A DNA stretch of 64,000 bases, taken from the NCBI GenBank assembly GCA_003116975.1, contig BGKB01000048.1:155001-219000 (forward strand). The letters are read 5' to 3'. Made by a program: the position numbers and the translations under genes. Below the pieces are notes generated by a model. That model was not told the origin of the DNA. It did no database searches and saw only the letters and a list, made by a program, of their open reading frames with translations. This DNA comes from Aurantiochytrium sp. KH105 (lineage: Eukaryota; Sar; Bigyra; Thraustochytrida; Thraustochytriidae). Shown here one piece after another: positions 27,892 through 60,561 of the stretch (the stretch's first letter is position 1; every line of letters starts with the position of its first letter).

Positions 27892-28770
27892 GTGCAGCTG
27901 CAGAGCAGTGCAGGCGAGAAGAAGAGCAAAGCAAAGCACAAGCAGCGTGATTGATCAGCCCCGGGTCATCATGGTGATCAAGGACGGCCTGCCTGCCACA
28001 GCCACTGCCATTCGGACCGCGCTTCTCGACCGCGAGCCAGATGGGCAAGGCAAATCGAAACTTTCTGCTGCAATGACAGGCAGGAGAACCGTGAGTCAGA
28101 GGTATAGGCCAGCTGCAGCTGCAGCTGGCATGTGGCTGCAGACAAAAAAAGCTCCAACAACTTCTTTGCGCTGCCAGACAACTTCTTGGCAAGACAACTT
28201 TTGGGGCCACTGGCGTATAGGCTATCCTTAAGCAACCAAGCGCAACCAAGAAACCTCATCGCATGCTGGCCCTGTGATAAGGAGAACCACCGAATCTGGT
28301 GGTGGCTGCAGCAACAGTGACGGGGTCGAAGTCGCTGGCCAGCCGGAGCTGCTGCTGCATGCACTGCACGAATAAAGCACGCGTCTCTCTCTCGTGCGCG
28401 CACTCTTACGTCGCTAGCTGCCGCCGTAGAGAGCCGAACGGGACGACGACGACCTCGCCATTCGTAGCCAACCACATGACAGCCACCAGTCACTTCAGGC
28501 AAGAGGCCGGCTCACCTCGCACACCCTTTCTTGCGCGCACACTCGGTCCCCACGCGGACACCCTTTTCCCGGGCCCCTCCATACTTCCGCCGCTGGGTGT
28601 GCTTTATCTTATTATCTTAACTATCAACGATCTGCACCCAGCGCCTTTGTGGAACCCGGTCCGGTCCTGCCGCGCGTGCAGGTCCCATCGCGCAGGCCCT
28701 CCAGGCCCCGGGCTCGCAGCAGCAAGTTGATCCTGATTCCCGGCCGGGAGGTCGGCCGCCTTGACTCGCC

Positions 28771-28860
28771 TCACCTCAGCTCGCCCGGCCTGGCCTGGCC
28801 TCGCCTCGTCTCGCCCTGGCTCGCCTCGGCTCAAGCGGCTCGCCTCGGCTCAAGCGGCCG
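28771..28860. repeat. CTCGC/CTGGC pentamers and a 19-bp tandem repeat
   Basis: Roughly ten 5-bp steps of CTCGC and CTGGC variants are followed by two exact abutting copies of GGCTCGCCTCGGCTCAAGC at 28818-28836 and 28837-28855. Confidence 0.8.
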
Positions 28861-29409
28861 GGCCTGGCGCGCGCGGGTCCCTCGCTCGCTCGCGCGCCTT
28901 CCCGTGACAGTTCTCCGGGATGATAAACTTGTTCTTCGCCTTGCGCCGCTCGCAGTAGTAGTACTATGGCGGCTGCCTGCCTGCCTGCCTGCCTGCCTGG
29001 GAGACAGAGAATCTCCTCGCCGCCGTCGCAGATTCGCAACGACGACAGCGACCTCCGCGCGTCCACTCCGCCGCCGCGCACGCTGCCCCGCTCGGGGAGC
29101 GGTCCTCGCGCGGGCTCCTTCGCCGCGAGGCGGTCTCCCTCGCCGCGAGGCGTCCCGGTCCCGTCGATCGATCGCCGCATCATCGACGACGTCGCCGCAG
29201 ACGCCGCCGCGCCCCGGAAGAAGAGCAGGCCCGGGCCCACGCAAGGCCGCGGCGTCTTTGTTACGCGGTTCCCACCCGCCCGCCCGCCCTCGCCCGGCAG
29301 CAGACCCGAGTCGCAGCGCAGCTGCAGCAGCCGCGCCTCCGCCGTCGCGCCGCGCCGCCCGCGCGAGTCTTCGCTGCCGGCGCTCCGCGCGCGGCCAACT
29401 GAGTCTCTT

Positions 29410-29438
29410 CTCTTTCTTTCTTTCTTTCTTTCTTTCTG
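29410..29438. repeat. CTTT tetranucleotide tract
   Basis: About seven CTTT units, a pyrimidine-rich run just before the lipin-like gene and probably in its leader. Confidence 0.8.
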
Positions 29439-29542
29439 TCTTGGCCGAGGCGAGGGAGATCAGATCGTCTCGCCTTCGACGTCCGCGCCGCGTCGGCACA
29501 TCGACCTCGCGTGCGCGCTGCTGCTGGCGCAGCGCAGGCCGC

Positions 29543-30652
29543 ATGGCGGGCGTGTGGGCCGCGCTCGCGCGGCTGTTGTTCGCGCAGCAGGAGGCCGTGG
29601 GCGCAGGCGACGTGGTGCTGGTGCGCGGCAGAACCCGGGCCGACGGCAAGCGCGAGGTGGCCGAGACCGAGGCCGCCGCGCTCGAGGCGACGCCTTTCCT
29701 GGCCCACCTCGGCAGGGACGTCGCCGGCAGCGACGATGACGATGACGAGGGTGTGGACGTCGTCGTTGGCGACGAGGAGGAGCGCGATGCCGTTGAGATC
29801 CGAGTCAATGGCACGCGCATCGAACAAAGAGTATCTGTGGCACATGGCAAGCCCTCATTTGCGGCCGCGCGCAAGGGGCCTGCGCTGCTCACACCGGGAC
29901 CTGAGGCAGCGGAAATTGCGCTCCACCTCGGACAGACCACGAGGTTGCACGGTGCCGCTTTGCGCGAGCTTCCACTCCGTGCAGGACGGAACCAGCTCTC
30001 GTACACCTGGGTTCGCGGGAATGGCCAAGTACAGTCCATCGATGACGCAGCAGTCTACGTATTGGCCTCCTCGAGCCGCATGGTCGTCGTAAACCTCGAC
30101 GTCTTCGTCCAGCTGGAAGCAAGCGGCGCCATTGCACCCGTAGTCTCGTCCCAAACCTCGCTCTGTGCCCGCACGCTTGCGCGCATTGCGCGTAATGCTT
30201 ACGGCCTCCTCTTCGTGTCAGCGCGGTTCTCCGTAGAGAGAGCCACAGAGCTGCGCGAACTTCTCTTTGCAGAGCTCGACCTTCCGCTGGGACCCATGCT
30301 TCTCCATGGAAATCGCGCGGGCCATAGGGCTGCTCTCGACCCTGTGGGCCCCCGCGCTGAATGCCAGCGCTTCAATGCCGAGACGTTGCGCGAGCTCTGC
30401 CGGGCCTTTGGTCGCAACCCCTTCGTGGCTCTCTTCACCGATGACGTTGCCAGCGTAGATCCCAAGTCTCTTGATGCCCCTCGATCACGCACATATGCTC
30501 CTGACTTCGAATCTTCCTCAGGATGGGCGAGCGGATGCGGCCGAACCCCCCTTCAAGACGAGGTAGTCGACCTTGCTTTCCCCAAAATTGCCACAAAGGC
30601 CTGCTTCGGCTACAATCATGCCGTCGGCCAGTCTATTTATTTTTATGCGTGA
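29543..30652 (+). CDS. lipin-like protein (N-LIP and LNS2 domains) lacking the DxDGT catalytic motif
   Basis: A 369-residue protein aligned by eye with lipin/Pah1 phosphatidate phosphatases. N-LIP signs: GDVVLVRGRTRADG, TPFLAHLGRD and EIRVNGTRI, matching the IDIIVV..DG, SPFHVRFGK and VDIEINGE pattern. LNS2 signs: LPLRAGRNQLSYTW (as LxLxxGxNxVxYSV), then MVVVNLDVFVQL where active lipins have VISDIDGTIT, YGLLFVSARF (as YLSAR), GPMLLH, and NAETLRELCRAFGRNPFVALFTDD at the end. The nucleophilic first Asp is Asn and Gly-Thr is Val-Phe, so phosphatase activity is not expected. An acidic run (SDDDDDEG) interrupts N-LIP. Membrane or transcriptional roles remain possible, as does lipid binding in the manner of the inactive LNS2 of Nir proteins. 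No second lipin is in this window. Confidence 0.8.
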   Translation: MAGVWAALARLLFAQQEAVGAGDVVLVRGRTRADGKREVAETEAAALEATPFLAHLGRDVAGSDDDDDEGVDVVVGDEEERDAVEIRVNGTRIEQRVSVAHGKPSFAAARKGPALLTPGPEAAEIALHLGQTTRLHGAALRELPLRAGRNQLSYTWVRGNGQVQSIDDAAVYVLASSSRMVVVNLDVFVQLEASGAIAPVVSSQTSLCARTLARIARNAYGLLFVSARFSVERATELRELLFAELDLPLGPMLLHGNRAGHRAALDPVGPRAECQRFNAETLRELCRAFGRNPFVALFTDDVASVDPKSLDAPRSRTYAPDFESSSGWASGCGRTPLQDEVVDLAFPKIATKACFGYNHAVGQSIYFYA

Positions 30653-31019: not shown

Positions 31020-34000
31020 CTATTCTCCCTTGCCTGATCGGGAAGCGAGAATCTTCGACCGCAAATGCGCCAGTGCCGGCCCAGTGTATTTGTGAGCCCG
31101 CATCACCTGCACAAATTCGCTTGGCGTAATAATGTGCTCTCCGTCTTCGTTTTCCTCACCGGTCATCTTGAACATGCGTCGAACTGTGCGTGGGTCTGCG
31201 TGCGGATCCACCACCAACACCAGCAGCTCCCACTCATCCATGTCCAGGATACCATCACCGTTGGCGTCTCCAGACTTGAAAATCTCGCACAGCGTATCAT
31301 ATTCACTCTTTTCCATGGCATACCACGCGCGCATGACCACGTCCAGCACTTCATGCAGAGACACGCACAAGGTTAATTTCTTTCCCAAAGGATTGGCGGC
31401 CTGTTCCTCTGCCGCCAATTGGCGCGCGCTCGAATGCCGTCGGCCACGCATCATCGAAAAGATATTGGAAGCCAGCTGATTACTCTGCGACATGATACGA
31501 GTCTGCACAATGCTCTTCATCGTCAACGACCCTCGCTGCGCGTCCTCCGCAACCTCCATTTCCACTCCTGTCCCTTCTTCCTCCTCTCTTGCTTCATCCT
31601 TTGGAACCCCGCTCGCATCCTCGACAGCTTCTGAGGAGGACGAGTCCGTAGTCGATGCGTGCACGAGGGATATTCCCGACCTCGCGCTCTGTAGGTCCTC
31701 TTCTGTGTACTTTGCCCACAGCCTATTGGACTCCAGCTCGCCCAACAAATCGCTGTTGGCAACTTCGTACTGCTGCAGCTCGCCCAGCCGGTCCATGAGA
31801 GCTTCGCGATCCGAGATCTCGTACCAGTACATTGACGCGATACCCATCACAGCATTCAGAACCTGCAAAAACGGTAATAACGTCTGGCCCTCAGAAGAAT
31901 CAATGCACTCACCAACATCCTCATAAGGCACAAGCGCTCGCACAAGCGATATAAAAAAGCTTTCCGCTTGTGTCGAATACCTCTCCGCGTCAATGGCGCC
32001 TACGAGTACGCCAAACCATCGTACCGTTGTCGAAGTGTCTGCCATTGAACGAAGTGCCACCGTAAATGCCGCGAGCGCACGTTTGGTTGCGGCGACGTCA
32101 TCTTCCTTGCTCAGAAAATGGTCGTACACGACTTCTGACAATGGCTCGCGAGCGTGGCCAGCACGGTCATCAATTGCATCAGCATCAATCTTTTCTTGAT
32201 AAACTTGCGCAATCGTGCTTTCGAGCTCGTCAAGCGTCCATCCGTCGGCCCGTGCCTTGCGCTTGCCAACAATCTCAACAAGTGATCGTGCCTGTCCGTG
32301 GCCCGAGATCTGCGCCGAGGAGACTGGGTCCGTTTGCGAAGCTTGCGCAACGCACGAGCTGTGGTATGCTGCTAGATTTCGAAGTCCAAGACGCTCCAAT
32401 CGCGCCTTGTCACCCAGCAGTAGCTTCGGATGAGCTACAAAGACGTCTTTTTCCAAGGTCTCGCGCGGAGCTTGCGCCAGCGTAGCCACAATCGCCTCCG
32501 CATGCCCAGCCACGTGAAAAGCGAGCTCCTCCGTACTATTTCGCACCAATGCGTCCATTAACATGGGTGAGCTCGCAATGAGGCCAGGCAAGAGGCCCAC
32601 ATCCGTGCACAGCGTACGCGAGACGACCTCTTGGTTGTTTCGCAGAAAGGCCAAGAACCACGCCGCGTTTTGCGCCGTGACTTGGCCAAGAAGGTCGGCA
32701 CGTTGCGCAAGTGAGTCCCCCAGCGTCGATTGACTAAAGTCGAGGATCGTGCCCACGATGTGCGGACTTGAATCCGCCAAGGTCTCCAAGAGATCTTCTC
32801 CAGCAGACTTTGACTCCAAAATGTCTCTCAGCGTTTGTCGATTGCGAACGAGCGTTGCCTCGAGGAAACTCGGCCCGAAGTCCACGACCTGATTCAAGAT
32901 TTCCTCCATCACCGAACGGTGTCGCTCAAACATGACCTTGGCCCCATTGTCTTGTGCGAGCCATTGGCAGTACACTTTTAGAAACTTGCCTGCCACCTCC
33001 GGTCTGCTTACCACGATCGTACGCAGCAACTCAGGCGAGAACCACAAAATGTCGCAAAATTTACCCCAGTGCAATTCCCAAAAGGAAATCAACCGCGTCA
33101 GCGAAGGCGCTTGCACGCAAAAAATACGTTCCACACCCGGGTCATTTTCCATGGCGCGCTGCGCGACGGCAACAGCGTCCTCGCGCTGAAGCGTGCAACA
33201 TACTGCTTCAACTGCGCTCTCTTTCGAGATGCATTCCTGAAGAACGAGTCGCAAGGCGTCCGGCACGGCGTCTTCCTCCAAAAGACCAAACAGACCGGCA
33301 ATGGTCAGCTCGTCCACCGGAACAGAACCAGTGCGATAGAGCTCCAAGACAATGTCTGTGCGGTCGCCGGCGTGCGGCGCGACACGCGCGAGGGTATGTT
33401 GCAGTGCTTCTACCGCGGCCGTGACGCGCGAGGGCCCCGACGAGTTCTTTCGCTTTGCCTCTTCATCGCGTCGTTCTTGCTCGGCATTTCTGTTGGAAGA
33501 TTTTTGCAGCTCTTCGATGAGATAATCTTGCTGGCGAATCTTGGCTTCCAAAACGCCTAGCCGCTCTCGCATCTCTGCATTCTCGCTCACCAGCTTTTCT
33601 TGCGATTCAAAGTAAAAGGAGGTTTTGGCATGAGCAGGGTCTAGCTCTTCGCTCGTCTGCTTGCTGCAGCAACCTGATGTTGACCTTGGAGAGAAGGCGG
33701 CAGACGTTAGCACCTGACCAACGGCAGTAAGTGCGCTTGCCACAAGATCGTCCTCGACGAGCTCCGTGATTGTTTTGAGTAAAGAGAAGGCTTTGTGCGT
33801 TGAAGACACCGAAGGCAGCGTCTCTGGCTTTGCGTTGTAGACTTCTTGCAAGAGAACCGAAAGGTCCAGGTGCTTTGCAACATTATCCCAGATCACTGCC
33901 GAGTGATCTACTCCTCGCAAATGGTCCGGATTCGAAATAGCGTCCCAGCCAAAGGCGAAGGAGTTTCGGTCCGTGTCGTGCGCAGACCCGCTGGTCTCAG

Positions 34001-34895
34001 GTTCTTGGCCTTGCTCGGATTCTGGACCGTAGTCCTTTGTAACGTAGGATGCCAAAACTCGCGTTCGGTCAGCAAGGCTCTGTTGCTCGAGCGTTCGCAT
34101 ACGATCACGCTTGAGTTCATGCGAAAGTTTTGCTTTCGGATGCTCAATCTGGTGCTTGAACGCGAGCACGGCCGAGTGCAAAGCAATGTTTTGGCGCATT
34201 TCGCGCACTTTGCAAAAGCTTTTTCCAAGTTTGGCAGAAAATGGAAATGCAATCGTTCCCTCTGACTGCTCGTGCGGTCGCCCTGGCCGACTTTGTTCGA
34301 CACGATCCTCAGTAGATGGTAGGTCAGATTCTTGGTTCGTTGCTGGTACCTTTTCGGGTTTCTTTCCGTTGTGATTGTGTGGTCGGCGCTGCAAAATAGG
34401 TGCGCGCTCTTCGTGTGTTGGTGCAAAGCGAAGCGGGGGCTCCGTAGTTTCTGCGTACCGCGTTTGATGCGACAATACATTTTCTTGTTTAGGGATGCAG
34501 GCCGATGCCGGCCGAGGTCGTGATCGTTTTGGCGAACGCGCTTTCTTTTGCGGAATTTCCACTGCACAGGTTGCGGCTTGTGGAGCTTCGCGAATAACTA
34601 CGCCAAGAAAGGGCTGGAGCGGAAGAATTTCGTCGCTTTCCCACCGCACAATCCCGCCCAAGGCCTCGTTCGCCTTCTTGTCAAAGGCCACCTCGCCGTC
34701 AACATCGTCTTCATCAGCATTGCTGTTTCCTGCCATCCACCATGGCTGCATCGCCTCCCCATGCCGGGCAGCTCTTGAGCGTGTCGCAGCATGTCCTTCT
34801 TCAGCTGCGCTAATACTGCTTCGTTTGCTTGGTGCTGTGCAAGGTCTTTTGCGCCGCGAGTGCGGCTTGGCACTTCGTGGTCGCTGCGGCTGCAT
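31020..34895 (-). CDS. large EF-hand protein with helical repeats, function unknown
   Basis: A 1291-residue single-exon protein. Residues 1-210 are basic, Ser/Arg/Pro-rich and probably disordered. A coiled coil (SENAEMRERLGVLEAKIRQQDYLIEELQK) lies near 430-470. The centre (about 500-880) is a run of 30-odd-residue amphipathic units that often end in a Pro- or Ser-Pro-containing turn (PELLRTIVVSRPEVAG, PGLIASSPMLMDALVRN, PKLLLGD), suggesting a solenoid. The C terminus has an intact EF-hand loop DANGDGILDMDE at about 1209-1220 and a second, weaker one with ENEDGEHIITPSEF. This combination fits a calcium-responsive scaffold. I do not recognise the family. Start at the ATG at 34895. Confidence 0.75.
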   Translation of the reverse strand: MQPQRPRSAKPHSRRKRPCTAPSKRSSISAAEEGHAATRSRAARHGEAMQPWWMAGNSNADEDDVDGEVAFDKKANEALGGIVRWESDEILPLQPFLGVVIREAPQAATCAVEIPQKKARSPKRSRPRPASACIPKQENVLSHQTRYAETTEPPLRFAPTHEERAPILQRRPHNHNGKKPEKVPATNQESDLPSTEDRVEQSRPGRPHEQSEGTIAFPFSAKLGKSFCKVREMRQNIALHSAVLAFKHQIEHPKAKLSHELKRDRMRTLEQQSLADRTRVLASYVTKDYGPESEQGQEPETSGSAHDTDRNSFAFGWDAISNPDHLRGVDHSAVIWDNVAKHLDLSVLLQEVYNAKPETLPSVSSTHKAFSLLKTITELVEDDLVASALTAVGQVLTSAAFSPRSTSGCCSKQTSEELDPAHAKTSFYFESQEKLVSENAEMRERLGVLEAKIRQQDYLIEELQKSSNRNAEQERRDEEAKRKNSSGPSRVTAAVEALQHTLARVAPHAGDRTDIVLELYRTGSVPVDELTIAGLFGLLEEDAVPDALRLVLQECISKESAVEAVCCTLQREDAVAVAQRAMENDPGVERIFCVQAPSLTRLISFWELHWGKFCDILWFSPELLRTIVVSRPEVAGKFLKVYCQWLAQDNGAKVMFERHRSVMEEILNQVVDFGPSFLEATLVRNRQTLRDILESKSAGEDLLETLADSSPHIVGTILDFSQSTLGDSLAQRADLLGQVTAQNAAWFLAFLRNNQEVVSRTLCTDVGLLPGLIASSPMLMDALVRNSTEELAFHVAGHAEAIVATLAQAPRETLEKDVFVAHPKLLLGDKARLERLGLRNLAAYHSSCVAQASQTDPVSSAQISGHGQARSLVEIVGKRKARADGWTLDELESTIAQVYQEKIDADAIDDRAGHAREPLSEVVYDHFLSKEDDVAATKRALAAFTVALRSMADTSTTVRWFGVLVGAIDAERYSTQAESFFISLVRALVPYEDVGECIDSSEGQTLLPFLQVLNAVMGIASMYWYEISDREALMDRLGELQQYEVANSDLLGELESNRLWAKYTEEDLQSARSGISLVHASTTDSSSSEAVEDASGVPKDEAREEEEGTGVEMEVAEDAQRGSLTMKSIVQTRIMSQSNQLASNIFSMMRGRRHSSARQLAAEEQAANPLGKKLTLCVSLHEVLDVVMRAWYAMEKSEYDTLCEIFKSGDANGDGILDMDEWELLVLVVDPHADPRTVRRMFKMTGEENEDGEHIITPSEFVQVMRAHKYTGPALAHLRSKILASRSGKGE

Positions 34896-42018: not shown

Positions 42019-44907
42019 ATGCCGAACGCAGCAGATCAGGACTTTGCTCAGGCCCTGGGGCCGCTCATGCTGCCCGTGAGGGTCGCGATGGCGATCGTGC
42101 GTGCCATGGCGTCGATGGCCAAACTGCACGCCAAGACGACCCTCATGCTCTGCGGACTTTCCCCCGCAGATTTCATGCTACCGGCGCGGAATCCAGGGCG
42201 GCATTTTGCCTTGGACCTGGTCTGGCGAATCCTGCGCTTTGTGCTGCGCATGCTCAGAATGGCATTCTATCCCGAAATTCTCTTTCGCAATGTCGCCGCC
42301 GCGATCGCCTTTCAGACGTTCTATCAGGCAGGCGGGTACACGTACAAGCGATTGCGGGCGCGAATTCTCATGTTCACCGAACGGGGCCGCAACATGGCGC
42401 ATTTCCGAGCCAAAATGGACGCCGCCAAGTCCTATCCCGAGTACCGTGAGGCCGAGAAAGCCTACCTTAACGTGCTCGGCTCGGCAGAAGTCCCGCTCGA
42501 CCCGAGTCAGCGCAAGATTGTCGCCCAGCTCACGGGAAAGGTGGAGCGCTACCGCGCCTTTATCGTGAACAACGACGTGCGCAGACTGACCTTCGAGCTT
42601 CGAAGCGACCTCTTGCGCAAGCACTTTGGTCACGACCAATTCCATCCCCTCGTGCGCCAGGCGATGCAGCGGTACGTTTCTGTAGTGTGCTGCGCCTTTG
42701 GCCTCATCGCAACGGGCCAAGTCCCCGACGAACTCGAGGAGCTTCTCTGCATGGACCAAGAAGTGCTCTCAGCGCCGACCACGAAGACAGACGCGCACGG
42801 TGGCGTGGACCCTGTCAGAACCCCCGAAGTTGACAAGGCCACGCCTGGCTCAGAACTTAATCCTGGCGCCGACACACCGTCCAAGATCAACGGTCGAGGC
42901 TCCATGAGTATTGAAGAGAAACTTGCCAAGGCGCGCTTGCGGCTCGACTTCTTTGCCGAGACGCGCCACTCCTTCGGACGCTCCGCGCTTCTTCTTTCTG
43001 GAGGCGCCCGCATGGGACTTTATCATGTTGGCGTCGTCAAGACTCTACTGGAGCACCGTCTCCTGCCCCGTGTGATATCTGGCAGCTCCGCCGGTTCAAT
43101 TATCGCCGCGGTGTTAGCATGCAAAAATGACGAGGAAATCGTGGCAGAGCTCTTTAATCCCGAGAAAATGAACCTGCGTTTCTTCGGCCGCTCCGACTCG
43201 ATCGACACCGGGCTCCAGGCGATTTTGCAGGGTACGGAACCTCCCGAGTACATTAAGAAATCTCTGCTCGCTGCATTTACGGGCGAGACGAACGGTGGCA
43301 ACAGCCTTTTGGGCACCCTGCTGATGCTCCTGCCTCCCCCATTCCCCTCTTACATTATGATTCTGCGCAAGCTGCTGCCGCGCTGGATCGACTCCAAGAC
43401 TCTTCTCGACATTGACGTTCTCAAGACGGCGATTCGCAACATTGTGGGGGACATGACGTTTCAGGAAGCTTTCGACAGGACTGGCCGCATTGTCAACATT
43501 ACCGTGACCCCTCACGGAGGTGACCGCGAGGTCCCTAACCTGCTCAACTACCTGACTGCGCCGTACGTGACCTTGTGGTCCGCCTCGTGCGCGAGTTGCT
43601 GCATCCCCGGTGTCTTTGCGCCGGTGACACTCATGGTCAAGACGCTCGAGGGCACGCTGGAGCCGTATAATCCGGCTGGTTTGACATGGATTGATGGTTC
43701 GCTCGAAGCCGACCTGCCCATGGAGCGCCTCTCGGAGCTCTTTAACATGAATCACTCGATTTGCTCCCAGGTGAACCCCCACGGCGCCATTCTCGCGCCG
43801 CACGAGCACAGTGATCTCGAGGAACTCTCGTCCCTGGATCGTCGCTTCTTTGCAGCAATCGGCCGACTCACGCAATTTGCACGGGACCAAGGGCGTAGTT
43901 ACCTCAAGCACGCCGCAAGCTTTGGCATGAAGAGCACAATCTTCGGACCTCTCAAGGGCCTGATTCCGGTTCTCACGCAAAAATACTCGGGTGACGTGAC
44001 AATTTATCCGCGTGTACGCGCGAGCGACTTTTTCACGCTCTTGCGCAACCCGTCCGAAGCAGAGTATGCGGCGTGTATTCAAGAGGGCGAGCGCATCACA
44101 TGGCCAAAGCTGCAGAGCATTCGCCGCCGCTGCATGGTCGAGTTCATGCTCGACGATTGTGTCCATGCCATGCAGTCGCAGATCGCCCGCCTTGAGCGCA
44201 AGCTACAGCAGCGCCGGTGTGGCGGAAGAGCTAACGGGCGCTCTGGCGGCTTCCAACGCTCCCTTGCTCTCGACGCGCCCGGGCCTCACGGTACGGCCCA
44301 GGACGTTGACATGGAGCAGCTCACCACAGACGTTGGCTCGGCGCGAGGTGGGCCTTCGATTCACGACGCCGCTGGCATTCCGATGAGCCGCGTGGCCTCG
44401 TACTCTGTCTTTCGTGCAAGGAGCATGGATGACGACAGCACCGAAGGTGAACTTGACGACGATGACCTCGACAGCGGAAGTCCCAAGTCGCCCATGTTCG
44501 GATCTTTTCCAGCTGCTTCGCATGCCGATCCGTATGAAAGACCCGATCGCGTCACAAGTGACGAAGAAGATGAAGACTCTTGGCAGGGTCAGCCGAGTGG
44601 GCGTATGCCTCGCTCAGACACGAGCCACCGTCTGGAGAGCAAGTTGCTCGGTCGAATCAGCTCCGTGCATCAGTTCAACACGTTCGCAAACCGATATGGC
44701 GTCGATCTCGAAGATGAGGACAATGAAGAGGAGGAAGAACATCTTGGAGCAGCTGGAGATTTAGGTTTTGGTCATGGTGGTGACGTTGCCGAAAGTGGTG
44801 GCGCCAAGGGGGCACCTGACTCGACTCTCTTTGGGGACGTGTCAGGGAATATCGAAGAGGGCGACGAAGGCGAAGAGGAAGATGAAGAGGACGATGAGCA
44901 GGCCTAA
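42019..44907 (+). CDS. patatin-domain triacylglycerol lipase (SDP1/Tgl3-5 type)
   Basis: A 962-residue lipase of the SDP1/Tgl family, which hydrolyses storage triacylglycerol at lipid droplets. An N-terminal hydrophobic region and the DUF3336-like helical part (about 60-250) precede the patatin domain. There LLLSGGARMGLYHVGV gives the oxyanion loop, ISGSSAGSIIAAV the nucleophile Ser in GxSxG (near residue 355), and WIDGSLEADLPMERLSELFNMN the catalytic Asp (near 558) and the typical lipase tail motif with SQVNPH. After about residue 720 the protein is low-complexity and ends in an acidic stretch (EEGDEGEEEDEEDDEQ). The ATG at 42019 is the first in frame. Activity call rests on complete catalytic motifs; lipid-droplet location is inferred from homologues. 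Confidence 0.92.
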   Translation: MPNAADQDFAQALGPLMLPVRVAMAIVRAMASMAKLHAKTTLMLCGLSPADFMLPARNPGRHFALDLVWRILRFVLRMLRMAFYPEILFRNVAAAIAFQTFYQAGGYTYKRLRARILMFTERGRNMAHFRAKMDAAKSYPEYREAEKAYLNVLGSAEVPLDPSQRKIVAQLTGKVERYRAFIVNNDVRRLTFELRSDLLRKHFGHDQFHPLVRQAMQRYVSVVCCAFGLIATGQVPDELEELLCMDQEVLSAPTTKTDAHGGVDPVRTPEVDKATPGSELNPGADTPSKINGRGSMSIEEKLAKARLRLDFFAETRHSFGRSALLLSGGARMGLYHVGVVKTLLEHRLLPRVISGSSAGSIIAAVLACKNDEEIVAELFNPEKMNLRFFGRSDSIDTGLQAILQGTEPPEYIKKSLLAAFTGETNGGNSLLGTLLMLLPPPFPSYIMILRKLLPRWIDSKTLLDIDVLKTAIRNIVGDMTFQEAFDRTGRIVNITVTPHGGDREVPNLLNYLTAPYVTLWSASCASCCIPGVFAPVTLMVKTLEGTLEPYNPAGLTWIDGSLEADLPMERLSELFNMNHSICSQVNPHGAILAPHEHSDLEELSSLDRRFFAAIGRLTQFARDQGRSYLKHAASFGMKSTIFGPLKGLIPVLTQKYSGDVTIYPRVRASDFFTLLRNPSEAEYAACIQEGERITWPKLQSIRRRCMVEFMLDDCVHAMQSQIARLERKLQQRRCGGRANGRSGGFQRSLALDAPGPHGTAQDVDMEQLTTDVGSARGGPSIHDAAGIPMSRVASYSVFRARSMDDDSTEGELDDDDLDSGSPKSPMFGSFPAASHADPYERPDRVTSDEEDEDSWQGQPSGRMPRSDTSHRLESKLLGRISSVHQFNTFANRYGVDLEDEDNEEEEEHLGAAGDLGFGHGGDVAESGGAKGAPDSTLFGDVSGNIEEGDEGEEEDEEDDEQA

Positions 44908-58053: not shown

Positions 58054-60561
58054 TCATGAGCGAGAGACAAGGCCTCGCGCCGAGGGATACATTTCCTCGG
58101 GATCCTTGCCCTCGTCATCGTCGATGCCGTGATGCGCGTGGCGATGGTGGTGCGACATGAGCGACATCGTCGGCCCATCGTCCCTGCTTGCAGACGAGGA
58201 CTTTCGTCGATCCCGCCCAGCCCGCGATGCGGTGCCTGGGCGCTTGCTCGACGCCCCTCGCGACTTGGTCCGTCGCGAGCTCGACGCCGTCGATCCACGT
58301 TCGCGCACAGACTCGCTTCCCGCCGTGCCAGGGTCGCCGGGGTTGTAGCTCAGGTACGGGTTGCAAGTCGGCAAGTTTTCCGGGGCAGCTCCAAAAGAAA
58401 CGTCCGGTTCCCCGCTTTCTAGCGCCGCCGTGAGCGCTGCTTGCACGCGCTGATTCATGGCCGCGCCATCATAATCCGCAGTAAGACGCTCCGTCATCTC
58501 CAAATCGAGCGTCGCGACATTCTCCGATCGGTACCGTGGGTTATCGTCGTACTGCTTGCGGTGATTTGCGTAGTCGGTCTCTGGACGCCGAGAACGCATG
58601 TTGCTCAAAGGCCGTGTGGGCCGGAGCTGATTTCCAGCAAACTCGATACGAGAAATCTTCCACTGGTCTTGCTTTTCGTCCCATTGGGCACGGGCATTCA
58701 ATTTATCCGCCTCGTCCGTTGGGATGAAATGTTCAATGACGAGCTCTTTGAGCTTGACCTGGCGAGTCAGCTCTCGAATCGTGTGCAACATGTCTTCGCG
58801 CTCTTGCTGAAAGCTCTGCTCAAGATCCTTAACCTCGGTCTTGCAGCCTTGGTACTTTTGCCACAGCTTCTTGAGTTTCTTGGTCTTCACCTCGACCTCG
58901 TCCTGAAGCGATGAGTACCGTTCCTCCTTCAGCATCATCTCTTCTTCTTTCTCGATCACCTTGCGTGCGAGAATGCGCTCCTGTACCCTGCGTTCCTCGA
59001 GCTCAATTTCGGCCTTGCGCAAATCCTCCTCTTGCTTCGCAGCCTTGTCCATGATCATGCCGCCCACCAAGAGACGCTGCTCCATCATCTTCAGCTTCTT
59101 CTGAAGCGCTTCTTTGGCCTGCTTGGCGCGCAAGGCTTGTTGGCCCTCCCGCTCTAGGCGCGCCTTAAGATCCGCGCGTTCCTTCTCCGACATGCGCTTC
59201 TCCTCCGTGATCTTTTCCAATTGTTCCTGGGCTTGTTGCTGGATTCGACGCTTGTCTTCCTCAGCTTGGCGTTTCATCTCGCTCTTCATCTCCTCCTTGA
59301 GCTCCTCGATTTGGCGCGAGTCCATCACAGGCTTGCCGGCCACTGCAGCGACGCCATCGACGACCGAATTGGGGTCGATCGGCTGGCCGTTCGCGGCCGC
59401 CTGCAGCTGTGCTTTGAGGCGCATAATTTCTTCCTGAAACTCACGCAGCATAGCATCTTTGGGATCCTCGTTGATCTTGGGCTTATTCTTGATCTTCTTG
59501 GCGCGATCAGCATAGCGCAGTGTCGAAAGCGTTTCATCGTAGTTGTAGTCTGCTGGTCCGCAGTTGGCAATCATTACCGTCTTGGTGTTACCACCTAGGG
59601 AGTCCTGCAAAAGACGAGTAAGCTTTGAGTCACGATACGGAATGTGCTGCGACTTGGAGCCCACCAGAGCAGAAATCACGTTACCCAGCGCGGAGAGCGA
59701 AAGGTTAATTTTAGTGGCCTCCTCGAGCCGCTCTCCAGTAGCGCCAGTCTTGGATTGCCGCTCCGAGCCAGCCAAATCGACAAGGTTCAGTTTGCCAACG
59801 CGAATCTTGGCTTCTCCCGAGCTTTCATCGAGCTCGCTGGTCTCCACCACGATGCTAAAGATCGAGTGCGACCGCGAGGAGGTCTGATTCATCCGCGTAG
59901 CGCCAACCTTGCGCTTTCCGTTACCCTCCTGCATGAGACGATCGATTTCCGCAACACTCTTGACGATCTCAACGCGCTGGTCCTTGACGTACACGCCAGA
60001 GTCCACGCTCTCCTTGAGCTCGAGTTTGTTTTTCGGATTGTGCGCCAAAAGATCACGGCACTCCTCCATGTAGATTTCGAGGTAACTTGCGCGCACCAAG
60101 AACTGCTTGTGGTCAGAACCCTCGGCAGCAATCTTGTCGAAAATGTGCTTGAAAGAGTTCGGAATAATGCCCTTGAGCTCCGGCGGGTCGCGACAACCCT
60201 CCATGGTGTGAGTCTTTCCGGCGCCGGTCTGCCCGTACGCAAATATGGTGCCATTGTAGCCTTCACAGACGCTTTCAACGATTGCTGCTGCGGTTCTGTC
60301 GTAAATTTGCTTTTGCTGTGCCGTGGGTCCATAGACCTGGTCAAAAGTGAACACCTTGGGGGGCTCTGAAGCTGCTGCGCTTGGGTTCGTAAGGCTAATA
60401 GACGCGCGCTGCTCGTCGACAATGGCGGCCGCCTCGTAACCCTCTTGCTTTTCCGTGCTGTTCAGGGGACGTACGCGAACCACGACACGCACACATTCGC
60501 CTGCCTTGCTGCGCGCGAGCTCGCGTCCGAATTTCTCGGCAGTTTTCGACTCCCCGCCCAT
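58054..60561 (-). CDS. kinesin-2 family motor (KIF3/FLA10-like)
   Basis: An 835-residue plus-end-directed kinesin. The motor domain (about 20-370) shows VRVVVRVRPLN, the P-loop GQTGAGKT at about 110-117, NQTSSRSHSIF (switch I), VDLAGSER (switch II) and HIPYRDSKLTRLLQDSLGGN. TLSTLRYADRAKKIKNKPKINEDPKDAMLREFQEEI is the kinesin-2 neck, with the typical KIKNKP-IN-DPKDA sequence. A long coiled coil of Glu/Lys/Arg heptads follows to about residue 620, then a Ser/Arg-rich tail with an intact SYNPGDPG segment. Kinesin-2 drives anterograde intraflagellar transport, which suggests a flagellated life stage. The start at 60561 is the first ATG before the motor; a longer open frame upstream is low-complexity and includes a GA tract. 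Confidence 0.93.
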   Translation of the reverse strand: MGGESKTAEKFGRELARSKAGECVRVVVRVRPLNSTEKQEGYEAAAIVDEQRASISLTNPSAAASEPPKVFTFDQVYGPTAQQKQIYDRTAAAIVESVCEGYNGTIFAYGQTGAGKTHTMEGCRDPPELKGIIPNSFKHIFDKIAAEGSDHKQFLVRASYLEIYMEECRDLLAHNPKNKLELKESVDSGVYVKDQRVEIVKSVAEIDRLMQEGNGKRKVGATRMNQTSSRSHSIFSIVVETSELDESSGEAKIRVGKLNLVDLAGSERQSKTGATGERLEEATKINLSLSALGNVISALVGSKSQHIPYRDSKLTRLLQDSLGGNTKTVMIANCGPADYNYDETLSTLRYADRAKKIKNKPKINEDPKDAMLREFQEEIMRLKAQLQAAANGQPIDPNSVVDGVAAVAGKPVMDSRQIEELKEEMKSEMKRQAEEDKRRIQQQAQEQLEKITEEKRMSEKERADLKARLEREGQQALRAKQAKEALQKKLKMMEQRLLVGGMIMDKAAKQEEDLRKAEIELEERRVQERILARKVIEKEEEMMLKEERYSSLQDEVEVKTKKLKKLWQKYQGCKTEVKDLEQSFQQEREDMLHTIRELTRQVKLKELVIEHFIPTDEADKLNARAQWDEKQDQWKISRIEFAGNQLRPTRPLSNMRSRRPETDYANHRKQYDDNPRYRSENVATLDLEMTERLTADYDGAAMNQRVQAALTAALESGEPDVSFGAAPENLPTCNPYLSYNPGDPGTAGSESVRERGSTASSSRRTKSRGASSKRPGTASRAGRDRRKSSSASRDDGPTMSLMSHHHRHAHHGIDDDEGKDPEEMYPSARGLVSRS

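What the first reader, a model, noticed from the sequence alone, without database searches (positions are those of the whole stretch)
29543..30652. A lipin homologue that has lost the phosphatidate phosphatase motif
Both lipin domains are readable, but the DIDGT motif is NLDVF: the nucleophilic Asp is Asn and Gly-Thr is gone, while SAR, GPxLL and the C-terminal FNAETL...NPF pattern persist. The gene is intact over 369 codons, so it looks maintained as a pseudoenzyme. In an oil-forming lineage, a lipin without catalysis could act as a lipid-binding regulator.
Basis: partly seen in the sequence, partly recalled or inferred. Interest (0 to 1): 0.7.

Follow-up and report, generated by a model that had tools for sequence, protein, structure and literature searches.

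The report
Catalytically dead lipin-like gene, still maintained
This gene encodes a relative of the fat-making enzyme lipin whose chemical machinery has been dismantled, yet both copies of the gene in this genome stay intact, so the cell probably uses it for something other than catalysis.

Summary
Window 29543-30652 (+) is an intact 369-codon ORF with a significant LNS2 match (PF08235, 47 bits, E 2.7e-12). DxDGT reads NLDVF. Aligned with Tetrahymena Pah2, the pocket is lost beyond that motif: Lys244 is Asn, and the motif-IV residues Asn268, Arg269 and Asp272 are replaced or gapped. Of the catalytic positions mapped, Asp148, Ser191 and Arg193 survive. N-Lip, the second domain claimed, is not supported. 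A colinear second copy of the region (contig C242; blocks 89-94% identical) carries the same dead motif, no indel, and 24 synonymous against 6 nonsynonymous changes (dN/dS 0.083): a maintained gene, not decay. The one other LNS2 gene that a six-frame search found, also in two copies, keeps DIDGT and the pocket Lys and Asn and carries an SH3-like stretch. A non-catalytic role is likely but its nature is open; loss of the Lys that Nir1 needs for phosphatidate binding weakens the simple 'PA sensor' reading. Eukaryotic orthologues could not be searched and no usable structure model was obtained. New variant of a known kind (LNS2 pseudophosphatases such as Nir proteins).

The parts
29543..30652 (+). 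CDS of the LNS2 pseudophosphatase, 369 aa plus TGA
   Evidence: second copy on C242 has the same length without indel
29543..29935 (+).
   Evidence: no Pfam match; no excess over shuffles; dN/dS 0.075
29936..30445 (+). LNS2 domain (residues 132-301, profile 2-176 of 226)
   Evidence: 47 bits, E 2.7e-12
30092..30106 (+). NLDVF (residues 184-188) in place of DxDGT: nucleophile Asp to Asn, second Asp kept, Gly-Thr lost
30218..30226 (+). SAR (residues 226-228), aligned with Ser191-x-Arg193 of Tt Pah2: kept
30290..30304 (+). GPMLL (residues 250-254), the lipin GPxLL motif: kept
30374..30376 (+). Asn278, aligned with the pocket Lys244 of Tt Pah2: lost
   Evidence: alignments agree on this column
30437..30454 (+). 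TDDVAS (residues 299-304) in place of GNRDTD: metal Asn268 is Asp, Arg269 a gap or Asp301, Asp272 Ala (alignment uncertain by about one residue); residue 301 is D in one copy and G in the other
30446..30649 (+). C-terminal tail (residues 302-369), no family match; 4 synonymous and 0 nonsynonymous changes between copies

Best explanation
A real protein-coding gene for a stand-alone LNS2 (lipin-fold HAD) protein that very probably cannot act as a Mg2+-dependent phosphatidate phosphatase and is kept by selection for a non-catalytic role. SHOWN: LNS2 homology; loss of the nucleophilic Asp, the GT and, by alignment, the pocket Lys and motif-IV residues; the same motif in a second copy; purifying selection between the copies; a separate lipin with an intact motif. 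INFERRED: no activity (from published mutants of Tt Pah2), and that the fold is kept as a binding surface rather than a catalyst. The mechanism I commit to (about 0.35 on its own) is a membrane- or partner-bound scaffold that modulates the genome's other, DIDGT-bearing lipin or its membrane, not through the canonical phosphate pocket.
For: LNS2 47 bits and 46.4 bits in the two copies; 20.1 bits against at most 6.5 in 2000 shuffles with an independent three-sequence profile. Position map to Tt Pah2: D146 to N184, GT to a gap and V187 (V187-F188), D155 to E192 (gap-dependent), K244 to N278, N268 to D300, R269 to a gap or D301, D272 to A303; kept D148 to D186, S191 to S226, R193 to R228. 24 synonymous against 6 nonsynonymous changes, w 0.083, Fisher p 4.9e-10, 0 indels, 4th lowest w of the 11 gap-free ORF pairs among the 34 ORF rows printed. 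The other LNS2 gene keeps D146, D148, GT, D155, R193, K244, N268 and D272 equivalents, with S191 to T and R269 to K; its core has 20 synonymous and 0 nonsynonymous changes between copies. Papers (passages only): D146 is the nucleophile and D146A is inactive (PMC7066176, PMC12657724).
Against: No transcript, orthologue or structure evidence. Both AlphaFold2 runs failed (mean pLDDT 34.1 and 32.4). Selection is measured between only two copies in one genome, with 30 differences; the 600 bases upstream differ by about as much per aligned base (3.06%) as the CDS (2.71%), though with 11 gap runs. The LNS2 part is the least constrained of three parts (w 0.123), and residue 301 varies between the copies. 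BLASTP and Smith-Waterman see no homology to the other lipin; homology rests on profiles. Arg269 loss alone need not abolish activity: R269E of Tt Pah2 kept some (PMC12657724, passage). Nothing links the protein to lipids experimentally.
Confidence: 0.78

Rival explanations
1. A PA sensor like the LNS2 (PILS) domain of Nir proteins: the dead pocket still binds phosphatidate and brings the protein to PA-rich membranes.
For: Nir1's LNS2 has SIDGS in place of DxDxT and binds PA (PMC12419160, passages). Here too the nucleophile is lost while the second Asp, the Ser and the Arg stay.
Against: Nir1 needs K820 in the pocket (K820E ablates PA binding); the Lys that lipins have near the pocket is Asn here, and the Arg269 position is Asp or a gap. 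No match to the Nir models PF24694 or PF24695 in the Pfam scan. N-terminal helix moment is ordinary, rank 151-184 of 352 windows.
Confidence: 0.25
2. An active hydrolase or transferase with changed chemistry, using Asp186 or Asp300 instead of the lipin nucleophile.
For: Asp148, Ser191 and Arg193 equivalents kept, and Asp300 is the same in both copies. Asp155 may be replaced by the similar Glu192.
Against: HAD phosphatase chemistry uses the first Asp, and the pocket Lys and motif-IV metal ligands are gone too (roles from PMC7066176 and PMC12657724, passages).
Confidence: 0.06
3. A decaying duplicate on its way to a pseudogene.
For: Catalytic residues lost, and residue 301 differs between the copies.
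Against: No stop or indel in either copy and w 0.083 over all, 0.075, 0.123 and 0 in three parts; codon-position differences 5, 3, 22. BLASTP against the DIDGT-bearing lipin finds no meaningful alignment (best E 0.34), so it is no recent duplicate of that gene.
Confidence: 0.05
4. Wrong gene model: an intron or frame change hides an intact DxDGT.
For: Eukaryotic genome; no transcript was available.
Against: The LNS2 match spans the motif in one frame, an independent profile aligns straight through NLDVF, both copies agree, and the synonymous pattern fits this frame.
Confidence: 0.03

Closest known systems
Lipin/Pah Mg2+-dependent phosphatidate phosphatases, nearest in size Tetrahymena thermophila Pah2 (PDB 6tzy)
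   Same: LNS2 domain with its order of motifs; similar size (321-residue chain against 369 aa) without a long linker; SxR and GPxLL kept; Leu103 equivalent Leu140
   Different: DxDGT, pocket Lys244, Asn268, Arg269 and Asp272 lost by alignment; N-Lip not detectable; a C-terminal tail without family match
LNS2/PILS domains of Nir1-3 (PITPNM)
   Same: A lipin-fold domain without the catalytic Asp, kept for a non-catalytic job
   Different: No match to the Nir-specific models PF24694/PF24695, no other Pfam domain, pocket Lys lost; Nir1 keeps SIDGS and K820
The genome's own DIDGT-bearing lipin (contigs C43 and C46)
   Same: LNS2 family, same genome, two copies
   Different: DIDGT, Lys and Asn intact, an SH3-like stretch and a weak N-Lip match (both under Pfam's cut-offs), about 1000 aa; no BLASTP similarity to the finding

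Membership tests
LNS2 domain family (PF08235) | profile match over the curated cut-off | tested here: met
   47 bits against a cut-off of 32.3; second copy 46.4
Lipin/Pah phosphatidate phosphatase | DxDxT catalytic motif | tested here: not met
   NLDVF
Lipin/Pah phosphatidate phosphatase | pocket Lys244, Asn268, and the Asp155/Arg269 signature (Tt Pah2 numbering) | tested here: not met
   N278, D300, E192 or A193, gap or D301; motif-IV alignment uncertain by about one residue
Lipin/Pah phosphatidate phosphatase | N-Lip region (PF04571) forming the Ig-like domain with C-Lip | tested here: not met
   no hit; caveat: even the DIDGT-bearing lipin of this genome scores only 19.5-24.2 bits, under the cut-off of 25, so N-Lip is unproven rather than disproven
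Lipin/Pah phosphatidate phosphatase | N-terminal amphipathic helix | tested here: inconclusive
   hydrophobic stretch present; moment 0.21-0.24 in the first five 18-residue windows, rank 151-184 of 352
Lipin/Pah phosphatidate phosphatase | PA phosphatase activity | not testable with these tools
   needs an assay
Nir/PITPNM PA-sensing LNS2 | LNS2_PITM1-3 and PITM beta-sandwich (PF24694, PF24695) and other Nir domains | tested here: not met
   only PF08235 found in the Pfam scan of the protein
Nir/PITPNM PA-sensing LNS2 | pocket Lys (K820 in Nir1) | tested here: not met
   Asn278 at the position of Tt Pah2 Lys244; Nir1 itself was not aligned here, and its K820 is taken as equivalent from PMC12419160 (passage)

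The most novel reading that the evidence does not exclude
A stand-alone, ancient pseudo-lipin family in this lineage, with both catalysis and the phosphate pocket abandoned, that serves as a dedicated protein regulator (partner or decoy) of the single DIDGT-bearing, SH3-like lipin and thereby of the phosphatidate-to-diacylglycerol step.
Probability: 0.2. Interest if true: 0.65.

Novelty: new variant of a known kind. Interest (0 to 1): 0.42.

Why it matters
Pseudo-phosphatases often regulate their active relatives (general knowledge). The catalytically dead LNS2 domains that I met in the papers seen are those of the Nir lipid-transfer proteins, where the pocket still binds PA. A stand-alone LNS2 protein that has lost the pocket as well would show that the fold can be kept for a further purpose.

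Tried and rejected
Structure: AlphaFold2 with the protein alone and with one bacterial LNS2 row gave mean pLDDT 34.1 and 32.4, so no fold search was run. PDB by sequence: the protein alone finds one irrelevant chain (E 0.11); the A1 profile finds Tt Pah2, but that profile holds the DIDGT-bearing lipin and so proves nothing for this protein. Relatives: none in viral contigs (29 pattern hits, 0 confirmed; 47 and 0); the lipin motif pattern hit two loci with the same 605-aa ORF, which looks by eye like an ATPase; genome contigs gave 1 confirmed of 41, a Myxococcota protein. No eukaryotic protein collection was available. NCBIfam gave nothing for the finding. PF04571 found nothing in the whole genome, but nothing rang in the controls either, so that search shows nothing. 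Plain Smith-Waterman against the DIDGT-bearing lipin is no better than shuffles in either half. A scan for bacterial promoter and terminator patterns was uninformative for a eukaryote. Literature: nine searches; in the rows listed (lists were capped; one search listed 2 of 3) no title or abstract start reports a stand-alone lipin pseudoenzyme. One paper holding 'lipin' and 'pseudoenzyme' (PMC11314389) was seen as a listing only. Passages were read in four papers: PMC7066176, PMC12657724, PMC12419160, PMC5703613.

Full report
Observation. The ORF 29543-30652 (+) is read as described: 369 codons, ATG to TGA. Pfam gives one match, LNS2 (PF08235), residues 132-301, profile 2-176 of 226, 47 bits, E 2.7e-12, over the curated cut-off of 32.3. 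A second profile, made here from three LNS2 domains with DxDGT (the genome's other lipin, Tetrahymena Pah2, a Myxococcota protein), scores it 20.1 bits, the best of 2000 shuffles reaching 6.5, and aligns NLDVF with DIDGT. The last 50 of the 226 Pfam positions are not matched.

N-Lip. PF04571 does not match the whole protein or either of two N-terminal pieces, nor an N-terminal piece of the second copy (limit E 10, though HMMER's filters drop most matches above about 0.1). A Smith-Waterman comparison with the N-Lip-like region of the genome's other lipin scores 28 against a shuffle mean of 28.1. The same test for the LNS2 half is also at shuffle level (29 against 29.4), so this test is weak, and the other lipin itself reaches only 19.5-24.2 bits with PF04571, under the cut-off of 25. 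N-Lip is therefore unproven, not disproven. The N-terminal residues are hydrophobic, but the helical moment of the first five windows is ordinary (rank 151-184 of 352).

Active site. Against Tt Pah2 (residue roles from PMC7066176 and PMC12657724, passages), MAFFT gives D146 to N184, D148 to D186, G149-T150 to a gap and V187 (V187-F188), D155 to E192 with the gap (A193 if ungapped), S191 to S226, R193 to R228, K244 to N278, N268 to D300, R269 to a gap (D301 if shifted), D272 to A303. Thus the nucleophile, the Lys that contacts the phosphate, and the motif-IV metal and PA-recognition residues are gone; the second Asp and the SxR remain. The Lys-to-Asn column is the same. The alignment around motif IV is uncertain by about a residue and lies at the end of the significant match.

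Genome context. A six-frame search with PF08235, which ignores introns and whose counts are lower bounds, finds four places: the window gene, a second copy on C242, and a lipin on C43 and C46 with 154 bits each. The whole window is colinear with C242: three main blocks of 93.7, 89.1 and 93.6% identity, as I would expect of two haplotypes or homeologous chromosomes (inference). The C43/C46 protein is about 1000 aa with LNS2 (150 bits), an SH3-like stretch that is under Pfam's cut-offs (17.4 bits against 22.9) but matches solved SH3 domains (best E 0.0005), and a sub-threshold N-Lip. It keeps DIDGT, D155, K244, N268 and D272 equivalents; S191 is Thr and R269 is Lys. PMC12657724 notes Lys at this place in some predicted PAPs, and reports that R269K of Tt Pah2 is weak (passages), so the activity of this lipin is likely but not shown. 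It has no BLASTP similarity to the finding beyond chance (best E 0.34), so the two are distant relatives at most. PF24694, the Nir-type LNS2 model, was not found in the genome by the same kind of search.

Selection. The two copies of the finding have equal length, no gap, and 30 differences: codon positions 5, 3, 22; 24 synonymous, 6 nonsynonymous; dN 0.0074, dS 0.0886, w 0.083, Fisher p 4.9e-10. By part: residues 1-131 w 0.075, 132-301 w 0.123, 302-369 4 synonymous and 0 nonsynonymous. One search printed 34 ORFs of 200 aa or more, many of them chance or antisense frames: 10 were dropped there for low identity to their partner, 24 got a w, and 11 of these align without gaps (one of the 11, w 5.5, is antisense to a gene). 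Among those 11 the finding has the 4th lowest w. The other lipin's core shows 20 synonymous and 0 nonsynonymous changes. Flanks: upstream 600 bases 3.06% mismatches with 11 gap runs, downstream 348 bases 8.23% with 5 gap runs, CDS 2.71% with none. The upstream mismatch rate being close to that of the CDS is a point against a simple 'neutral flank' contrast; the codon pattern and the lack of gaps carry the argument.

Function. Loss of the first Asp abolishes Tt Pah2 activity (D146A; PMC7066176 and PMC12657724, passages), so PA phosphatase activity is very unlikely. The nearest precedent for a dead LNS2 is the Nir family: PILS-Nir1 has SIDGS and binds PA through K820 together with an amphipathic helix (PMC12419160, passages). 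The finding lacks the pocket Lys by alignment and lacks a marked amphipathic helix, and it does not match the Nir models. I therefore rate a non-canonical binding or scaffold role above a Nir-like PA sensor, but neither is shown.

Verdict. A real, maintained LNS2 pseudophosphatase; not a phosphatidate phosphatase by the features tested; N-Lip unproven; mechanism open. New variant of a known kind, moderate interest.

Noticed in passing
L007 1402-4401 (-) and L008 1402-4395 (-) (contigs C43, C46): The genome's other LNS2 gene, with DIDGT, carries an SH3-like stretch (about residues 402-461, under Pfam's cut-off but matching solved SH3 domains) and has its weak N-Lip match shortly before LNS2, after a long N-terminal extension; the Arg269 position is Lys.
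   Followed up: partly
L017 1026-2510 (+): A Myxococcota MAG encodes a Nir-like LNS2 with PITM beta-sandwich (PF24695) and LNS2_PITM1-3 (PF24694) and DIDGT present.
   Followed up: partly
window 31020-34895 (-): 1291-aa ORF convergent with the finding, with only sub-threshold EF-hand matches near its C-terminus.
   Followed up: no
window 42019-44907 (+): Patatin-like phospholipase, 962 aa, w 0.068 between copies; another lipid gene about 11 kb away.
   Followed up: no
window 58054-60561 (-): 835-aa ORF with 60 synonymous and 1 nonsynonymous change between the two copies, the lowest w of the 11 gap-free ORF pairs; I did not search it against any family library.
   Followed up: no
window 28757-29442: GC-rich simple repeats and a TCTT run upstream of the start codon; the 600 bases upstream hold 11 gap runs between the copies.
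   Followed up: no
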